A stretch of DNA of 22,065 nucleotides from a virus. The notes under the pieces are model-generated. The model saw only the letters and a list, made by a program, of their open reading frames with translations. It did no database searches and was not told where the DNA came from. Positions within the stretch are counted from its first letter, which is position 1, and each line of letters starts with the position of its first letter. Of the stretch, positions 6,026 to 6,433 are shown piece after piece. The translations under genes were made by a program, and so were the position numbers. Location: positions 1 through 22,065 of the IMG/VR virus record IMGVR_UViG_3300036772_000009; one strand, written 5' to 3'.

Positions 6026-6433
6026 TTATTTGTCGCATCTACCGGAAACGATTCCTACGAATGCTTTTGTGGAGGTGAGTTGTTGAAATCCTGGGATGTT
6101 CATGACCTTAGAGTAAATGACCTTTTTATCGGTTGTTACGGACCAAGTTTCTACAGTTATGCCTCCCCCTGACTGATAGCTACCTACAATTGTGTTACTT
6201 GATAGAGTTACATATGACATGTCAGAAATTGCAGATCCGCTTAGATTAGTTAGAGATGCCTTATCTCCATCTATGGTCAGCTTAAAGACTGCGCCTGAAA
6301 TGGAGTCATCTATAAAATCATAGCTATCCTGACTAAATGCAGATTTCCCTTTTAAGTCAGACACGATCCAACAATCAGCTCGTGATGCGAGCGGCATCGA
6401 CATAACAGCCAAAGCAATGAATATGCGTTTCAT
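6026..6433 (-). CDS. Small exported protein co-transcribed with cI (candidate lysogenic conversion gene)
   Basis: This 135-residue protein has a clear Sec signal peptide: MKR, a hydrophobic core ([14 protein letters not shown]) and a likely cleavage after SRA at residue 19. The Cys at 21 is preceded by RAD and does not fit a lipobox, so a soluble periplasmic protein is expected. The only other Cys, at 133, could pair with it in a disulfide. The mature part looks beta-rich with many Ser, Thr and Gly ([21 protein letters not shown]). Its ATG overlaps the cI stop as ATGA, the slot used by rex genes in lambda, so it should be made in lysogens from pRM. I have seen similar hypothetical phage proteins but know no function. 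Confidence 0.85.

What the first reader, a model, noticed from the sequence alone, without database searches (positions are those of the whole stretch)
6026..6433. Exported protein gene translationally linked to the cI repressor
The gene directly follows cI with an ATGA overlap and encodes a protein with a Sec signal peptide and just two Cys residues at opposite ends of the mature part. The slot is that of rex genes in lambda, which act in exclusion. Because pRM is on in lysogens, the protein should be made in every lysogen and placed in the periplasm, making it a candidate for superinfection exclusion at the envelope or for altering the host surface. I know of no function for it.
Basis: partly seen in the sequence, partly recalled or inferred. 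Interest (0 to 1): 0.7.

Follow-up and report, generated by a model that had tools for sequence, protein, structure and literature searches.

The report
Exported Hex-type phage exclusion protein
The gene is a relative of Hex, a protein that dormant phage 434 makes alongside its repressor and that blocks infection by phage P22, and its conserved export signal suggests that Hex works in the cell envelope rather than inside the cell where published work places it.

Summary
6026-6433(-) is a real 135-codon gene that overlaps the cI stop by ATGA, carries a Sec signal peptide and has two Cys at the ends of the mature part. Published work (PMC3564112) reports that 434 Hex excludes P22 from Salmonella lysogens, is co-transcribed with cI from PRM, and protects the repressor from RecA, but never considers export. 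New here: (i) signal peptide and Cys pair are conserved across the family (74/74 and 71/74 unique proteins); (ii) the published 'active fragment' starts exactly at the predicted signal-peptidase site and is half of a confidently predicted 8-stranded barrel; (iii) a second branch sits in the sieA slot of P22-like prophages, 31 bp from ejection gene 16 in 55 of 60 loci, and four phages carry both copies. Most likely mechanism: a periplasmic, disulfide-closed barrel made in lysogens that blocks entry of superinfecting DNA. Identity and export are well supported by sequence; exclusion is inherited from 434; the ejection-conduit target is inference.

The parts
6026..6433 (-). hex-type gene, 135 codons plus stop
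   Evidence: ORF; 54% identical over the whole length to 434 hex product, Sf6 gp38 and others; PHROG 2651, unknown function, E 1e-42; purifying selection
6377..6433 (-). signal peptide, residues 1-19 ([19 protein letters not shown])
   Evidence: small residues at -1 and -3 in 74/74 unique family members; rule passed by 74/74; relaxed dN/dS 0.3-0.55 versus 0.03-0.12 in the mature part for the pairs with a defined value, except 0.14 mature for L094/L143
6029..6376 (-). mature protein, 116 aa, predicted 8-stranded beta barrel with a short helix before the last strand
   Evidence: AlphaFold2, pLDDT 93.2, pTM 0.85
6371..6373 (-). Cys codon, mature residue 2 (start of strand 1)
   Evidence: present in 73/74 unique family members
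6035..6037 (-). Cys codon, mature residue 114 (just after the last strand)
   Evidence: present in 73/74 unique family members
6430..6433 (-). ATGA start/stop overlap with cI
   Evidence: sequence; same overlap in 79 of 90 cI-linked loci
6444..6448 (-). GAGGG, likely ribosome-binding site inside cI
   Evidence: 10 nt before the ATG
6430..7062 (-). cI repressor, HTH plus S24 peptidase domain
   Evidence: Pfam HTH_3 5e-13 and Peptidase_S24 6e-26
7093..7151 (.). three OR sites of 434 type (PR and PRM region)
   Evidence: ACAAN6TTGT sites 7093 (one mismatch), 7116, 7138; the last is identical to a 434 and Sf6 OR site
5909..5976 (.). three OL sites of 434 type, just beyond hex
   Evidence: exact ACAAN6TTGT sites 5909, 5932, 5963; the first two identical to Sf6 OL sites
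7165..7380 (+). cro-like gene facing cI
   Evidence: HTH ORF; same place as cro of 434

Best explanation
The gene is the hex gene of a lambdoid phage with 434-type immunity. It is translated by coupling from the cI message, so it should be made whenever the prophage is silent. SecYEG exports the product, signal peptidase cuts after residue 19, and the 116-residue mature protein folds in the periplasm into a small 8-stranded barrel whose two ends are tied by a disulfide between Cys 2 and Cys 114. There it blocks infection by certain other phages, as 434 Hex does with P22. I think it does this at DNA entry, by interfering with the trans-periplasmic conduit that injected phage proteins build (P22 gp20/gp16/gp7), because a second branch of the family occupies the sieA position beside gene 16 in P22-like prophages and SieA acts on exactly that conduit. 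Shown here: homology, synteny, conserved signal and Cys pair, barrel prediction, second slot. Taken from the literature on 434: PRM transcript, P22 exclusion. Inferred: export in the cell, disulfide, target.
For: Homology to 434 Hex over the full length, 54%, same gene order OR-cI-hex-OL. P22 exclusion lost in the hex mutant and PRM transcript through hex: PMC3564112, which I read. Signal peptide in 74/74 unique proteins and two mature Cys exactly at the ends in 71/74; 1 of 40 window ORFs passes the same rule. Signal drifts in sequence but keeps its properties: identity to 434 is 4/18 in the signal and 69/116 in the mature part. Distant chromosomal relatives keep the same signal-CW start. AlphaFold2 barrel for both branches, pLDDT 93.2 and 92.1. 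Sec-type clues in the published 434 work: the stable fragment sHex begins at E43 of their 158-aa ORF, which is the residue right after my predicted cleavage site, and over-expression of full-length Hex stops growth. Second slot: gene 16 homologue convergent 31 bp away in 55 of 60 Emek-type loci, the place of sieA in P22; SieA blocks DNA injection through gp16/gp20 (PMC10883804, abstract and passages).
Against: No export, disulfide or exclusion experiment exists for this gene. In PMC3564112 a fragment without the signal, made in the cytoplasm, reduced spontaneous induction of the hex mutant about 7-fold and blocked RecA-stimulated cleavage of 434 and P22 repressors in vitro but not of lambda repressor or LexA; this specificity is not explained by a periplasmic barrel. 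The C-terminal end of that fragment (N103) is not explained by signal peptidase. No exclusion phenotype is known for the sieA-slot branch. I did not see the 1980 exclusion paper itself, so the blocked step is unknown to me.
Confidence: 0.55

Rival explanations
1. Repressor protection as published: Hex acts in the cytoplasm on the neighbouring repressor and prevents RecA-stimulated autocleavage, so that the lysogen is not induced by false alarms. Exclusion would be a side effect.
For: 30-fold more spontaneous phage in a hex mutant, only in recA+ hosts; partial complementation by the fragment; in vitro protection of 434 and P22 repressors (PMC3564112). Gene always next to cI in the cI-linked branch: 79 of 90 loci with ATGA overlap, 8 with an 8-nt gap, 3 with an interrupted cI.
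Against: The protein has a conserved export signal that the paper does not mention: zero occurrences of signal, periplasm, secret-, membrane. The fragment tested covers strands 1-4 only, lacks Cys 114 and the best conserved part (window versus 434: fragment 26/61 identical, remainder 43/55), and was refolded from 4 M guanidine. The hex mutant carried a cat cassette with its own promoter and terminator next to cI. Relatives occur in 65 loci without a 434-type cI beside them except two weak cI matches. Hex changes much faster than the cI it would have to bind: at the far end 46-59% identity against 79-91% for the cI C-terminal domain.
Confidence: 0.15
2. A surface or envelope factor of lysogenic conversion that is not aimed at phages: a small exported barrel that binds a ligand, a lysozyme or a toxin and helps the host.
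For: Stand-alone relatives in genomes lie in islands beside integrases, LptD or a type VI secretion cluster rather than beside repressors. Fold neighbours are generic ligand or surface barrels such as NHBA C-terminal domain, Z 8.2.
Against: 434 Hex is needed for P22 exclusion (PMC3564112). Both phage branches lie in slots that elsewhere hold exclusion genes (rex, sieA).
Confidence: 0.15
3. Exclusion by masking a phage receptor at the outer membrane, as the Cor lipoprotein type does (recalled).
For: Exported, made in lysogens; fold list includes OmpA, Z 7.2; one public record labels the gene PagP.
Against: Cys is at +2 of the mature part, not +1, and no lipobox precedes it; no C-terminal aromatic residue such as outer-membrane barrels end with (rule recalled; the protein ends RCDK); P22, the known target of 434 Hex, uses O-antigen (recalled).
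Confidence: 0.1

Closest known systems
Hex of phage 434 / lambda imm434 (Shkilnyj, Colon, Koudelka 2013, PMC3564112; Susskind and Botstein 1980, not seen)
   Same: Homologous over the full length (54%), same place between cI and OL, same ATGA overlap, signal and Cys pair also present in 434
   Different: The window gene has an in-frame stop 6 codons upstream, so the 158-aa form used in the paper cannot exist here; function of this copy untested
Sf6 gene 38, HK446, HK633, Sf101, Chlobot, Huey genes
   Same: Same family and slot, 53-55% identity
   Different: All without assigned function; Huey's is labelled PagP
Emek gp14 and the Emek-type branch
   Same: Same protein family (33% identity), same signal and Cys pair, same predicted barrel
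   Different: Lies in the sieA slot beside gene 16, not in the cI operon
SieA of P22 (PMC10883804)
   Same: Same genomic slot as the Emek-type branch; prophage-expressed exclusion protein of the envelope
   Different: Different protein: no SieA match in any of 158 loci; SieA is an inner-membrane protein
RexA/RexB of lambda
   Same: Slot downstream of cI on the PRM message
   Different: Exported single protein here; sequence comparison with Rex not done

Membership tests
Hex (phage 434 type) | Sequence homology over the full length | tested here: met
   tblastn 54.1%, residues 1-135, E 2e-41
Hex (phage 434 type) | Directly follows cI, between cI and OL, 434-type operators | tested here: met
Hex (phage 434 type) | Transcribed from PRM with cI in lysogens | not testable with these tools
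   RT-PCR only for lambda imm434
Hex (phage 434 type) | Excludes P22 from Salmonella lysogens | not testable with these tools
   known only for 434
Hex (phage 434 type) | Protects repressor from RecA-stimulated cleavage | not testable with these tools
   shown for a 434 fragment
SieA | Sequence homology to P22 SieA | tested here: not met
   tblastn of P22 SieA finds none of 158 loci at E 1e-2
SieA | Slot beside gene 16 | tested here: not met
   window copy is in the cI operon; only the Emek-type branch is in that slot
Rex (RexA/RexB) | Sequence homology | not tested
   only Pfam, PADLOC, NCBIfam and PHROGs scans of the window protein, none of which names Rex
Lipocalin / FABP-like barrel | Profile and fold match | tested here: inconclusive
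   Lipocalin_4 13.4 bits against cut-off 22.4; FABP-type chains Z about 7, generic barrel
Periplasmic lysozyme inhibitors (PliC/MliC and others) | Fold match | tested here: inconclusive
   not among the rows shown
PagP | Homology to PagP | tested here: inconclusive
   label in one record; no PagP family or 7

The most novel reading that the evidence does not exclude
Hex proteins are periplasmic, disulfide-closed barrels that stop superinfecting DNA at the ejection conduit. Prophages deploy them from two silent-state loci, the PRM-cI message and the sieA slot beside ejection gene 16, and some phages carry both with different targets. The published cytoplasmic RecA/repressor activity would then be a property of an unfolded half-barrel released at the signal-peptidase site, not the biological role.
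Probability: 0.35. Interest if true: 0.72.

Novelty: new member of a known kind. Interest (0 to 1): 0.55.

Why it matters
Hex has been known as a 434 exclusion locus since 1980 (date from the reference list), with one modern mechanism paper in the library searched, which places it in the cytoplasm. Sequence evidence from 74 unique relatives says that the protein is exported. That turns an old question, how Hex excludes P22, into a simple test, and would add a soluble periplasmic class to the superinfection exclusion proteins that act on DNA entry. The family is common: 434-type hex in 202 of 5,426 and the sieA-slot type in 145 of 5,426 complete E. coli genomes, mostly annotated as hypothetical and in 3 of 4 cI-linked records that I opened with a start codon that cuts off the signal.

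Tried and rejected
Domain libraries: no Pfam, NCBIfam or PADLOC family for the window protein at E up to 1 except sub-threshold Lipocalin_4. PDB sequences: profile search gave only E 1.3 and 5.6. Fold search in PDB and BFVD: no hit at E <= 0.001; second look best Z 8.2, within what unrelated barrels give; lysozyme inhibitors, PagP and SieA are absent from the rows shown, which proves nothing. Lipoprotein idea: rejected, Cys is at +2 with no lipobox. Outer-membrane barrel: judged unlikely for lack of a C-terminal aromatic (recalled rule). E. coli genomes with the window's own cI-hex DNA: no megablast match. Chromosomal relatives as a clue to function: contexts are mixed (integrase, GH28, sulfate permease, LptD, T6SS, HD domain), no common partner, so not used.

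Rows dropped or failing: L004 is the window itself; L114 and L115 failed the start picker and are not in the 156 loci / 74 unique proteins; L010/L013, L011/L017 and L012/L021 are the same contigs fetched twice (identical proteins collapse in the unique count). One search kept only the best 80 of 157 relatives. Cys exceptions: L007 lost the C-terminal Cys, L063 has an extra one, L077 has Tyr for Cys 2. Three of the 90 cI-linked loci have an interrupted cI, so their overlap could not be scored; HK633's is annotated as carrying an in-frame stop. In one search the query called inj20 was read in a wrong frame, so I use none of its matches; only the gene 16 query is used. SieA absence covers the fetched flanks only.

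Full report
What is there. The ORF at 6026-6433 on the minus strand starts inside the stop codon of cI (ATGA, 6430-6433) and has a GAGGG 10 nt upstream. cI has an HTH and an S24 peptidase domain. OR (7093-7151) and OL (5909-5976) flank the pair with sites of the ACAAN6TTGT type: five of six are exact and one has a mismatch. The site at 7138 is identical to an OR site of 434 and Sf6, and the sites at 5909 and 5932 to OL sites of Sf6. Sites of this looseness (one mismatch) are common by chance in the window (15 found, 11 expected), so the evidence is the two clusters of three in the right places and the identity with 434 and Sf6.

It has a known relative. tblastn in 50,697 phage records finds 16 records: 13 at 53-55% identity over the full length (434, lambda imm434, Sf6, Sf101, HK446, HK633, Huey, Chlobot and duplicates) and three at 33% (Emek twice, ST-35). 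In the 434 records the gene is called 'repressor protection protein' and sits in the same place, between cI and N. This is hex. PMC3564112 (parts 1-3 of 5 read) reports RT-PCR of a PRM transcript through hex, 30-fold more spontaneous phage in a hex mutant only in recA+ hosts, inhibition by a fragment 'sHex' of RecA-stimulated cleavage of 434 and P22 repressors but not of lambda repressor or LexA, and cites Susskind and Botstein 1980 (not seen) for exclusion of P22 in S. typhimurium lysogens, which the hex mutant lacks.

Export. I scored 156 loci (window included), 74 unique proteins. Placing the cut one residue before the CW motif, all 74 have Ala or Ser at -1 and Ala, Ser, Val or Thr at -3, a basic residue in the first six and a hydrophobic core; all 74 pass a Sec rule that shuffled N-termini pass in 8% and that 1 of 40 gene-like window ORFs passes. 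71 of 74 have exactly two mature Cys, at residue 2 and near the end; the three exceptions are named in Tried and rejected. The signal drifts (dN/dS 0.28-0.55 where defined) while the mature part is held (0.03-0.14), as expected for a signal peptide.

Start codon. The 158-aa Hex of the paper begins 24 codons upstream inside cI. 15 of 18 cI-linked representatives (below 90% identity) have an in-frame stop less than 24 codons upstream, the window at 6 codons, so that form is not the family's start. Conversely, 3 of 4 E. coli cI-linked records that I opened annotate a start 31 codons downstream, which removes the signal (the full start is used); that Met is Phe in 11 of 18 representatives. These two mis-starts may explain why export was overlooked.

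Reading the 434 data again. The stable fragment that the authors obtained begins at E43 and ends at N103 of their 158-aa ORF. E43 is residue 19 of the ATGA-start protein, the first residue after ..SANS, which is where the family-wide cut is predicted. The authors discuss factor Xa, bacterial proteases or autoproteolysis for this cut; the words signal, periplasm, secret- and membrane do not occur. Signal peptidase explains the N-terminus; it does not explain the C-terminal end. In the AlphaFold2 model of the window's mature protein (pLDDT 93.2, pTM 0.85) strands are 2-14, 22-36, 39-44, 54-59, 62-69, 72-80, 85-93 and 102-113; the fragment corresponds to residues 1-61, that is strands 1-4, without Cys 114. 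It is the less conserved half: window against 434, 26/61 identical in the fragment, 43/55 in the rest; over 21 representatives mean column conservation 0.60 and 0.74. It was refolded from 4 M guanidine. Lethal over-expression of full-length Hex also fits a secreted protein that clogs export. Against this, the fragment reduced induction about 7-fold in vivo and was specific in vitro, which I cannot explain away.

A second slot. An alignment of the distant members found 65 viral loci. Of the 60 Emek-type loci (L094-L153) 55 have a gene 16 homologue, convergent, ending 31 bp beyond the hex match; three have it 619-1849 bp away, two not within the flank. In P22 this is the position of sieA, which ends 22 bp from gene 16. 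An E. coli copy lies between Mnt/Arc-type regulators, antirepressor and tailspike on one side and the DNA transfer and ejection genes on the other. No P22 SieA relative is found in any of 158 loci (flanks of about 4 kb). Four viral contigs carry a cI-linked and an Emek-type copy (confirmed in 4 of 4 records). The Emek-type model is the same barrel (pLDDT 92.1). [quoted passage not shown]

Evolution relative to cI. Across 17 cI-linked representatives compared with the window, mature Hex identity falls to 46-59% for 434, L027, L028, L083-L087 while the cI C-terminal domain stays at 83-91%. A partner of cI could still diverge on its surface, so this only leans against a conserved contact.

Distribution. 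434-type hex: 202 of 5,426 complete E. coli genomes; Emek-type: 145 of 5,426. Whole genomes: 11 of 392 in the family of Enterobacter quasihormaechei and 4 of 394 drawn from its order, that genome itself counted in both.

Synthesis. What it is (Hex homologue): about 0.95. Exported: about 0.9, on sequence alone. Exclusion as the main role: about 0.65, from the 434 phenotype and two exclusion slots. DNA entry at the ejection conduit as the step: about 0.4, by analogy of slot. Whether Hex also protects the repressor stays open.

Print status. Library searches on Hex, imm434 and exclusion returned one primary paper on the Hex protein, PMC3564112; export of Hex appears in none of the texts or passages that I saw. 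Most subscription papers are not held.

Noticed in passing
L196:3094-3405, L197:1294-1605, L199:1294-1605: Three of four E. coli RefSeq records opened annotate 434-type hex from an internal Met, which removes the signal peptide; the fourth (L198) uses the ATGA start.
   Followed up: partly
   Followed up: partly
L185:5043-5846: One genome carries two diverged hex relatives in tandem.
   Followed up: no
window 12002-13081 and 12105-12998 (+): Two long ORFs (359 and 297 codons) overlap in different frames; the first looks like a cytosine methyltransferase (by eye, motif recalled).
   Followed up: no
window 11248-11541 (+): Small ORF starting MKKLILIAALFLAACDQ, which looks like a lipoprotein with a lipobox (by eye), a second exported phage product.
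   Followed up: no
L006:1501-1905 (phage Huey): Public record labels the hex homologue 'PagP', most likely a false transfer from a barrel resemblance.
   Followed up: partly
L009:872-1048 (HK633): cI is annotated as truncated by an in-frame stop while the hex downstream is intact.
   Followed up: no
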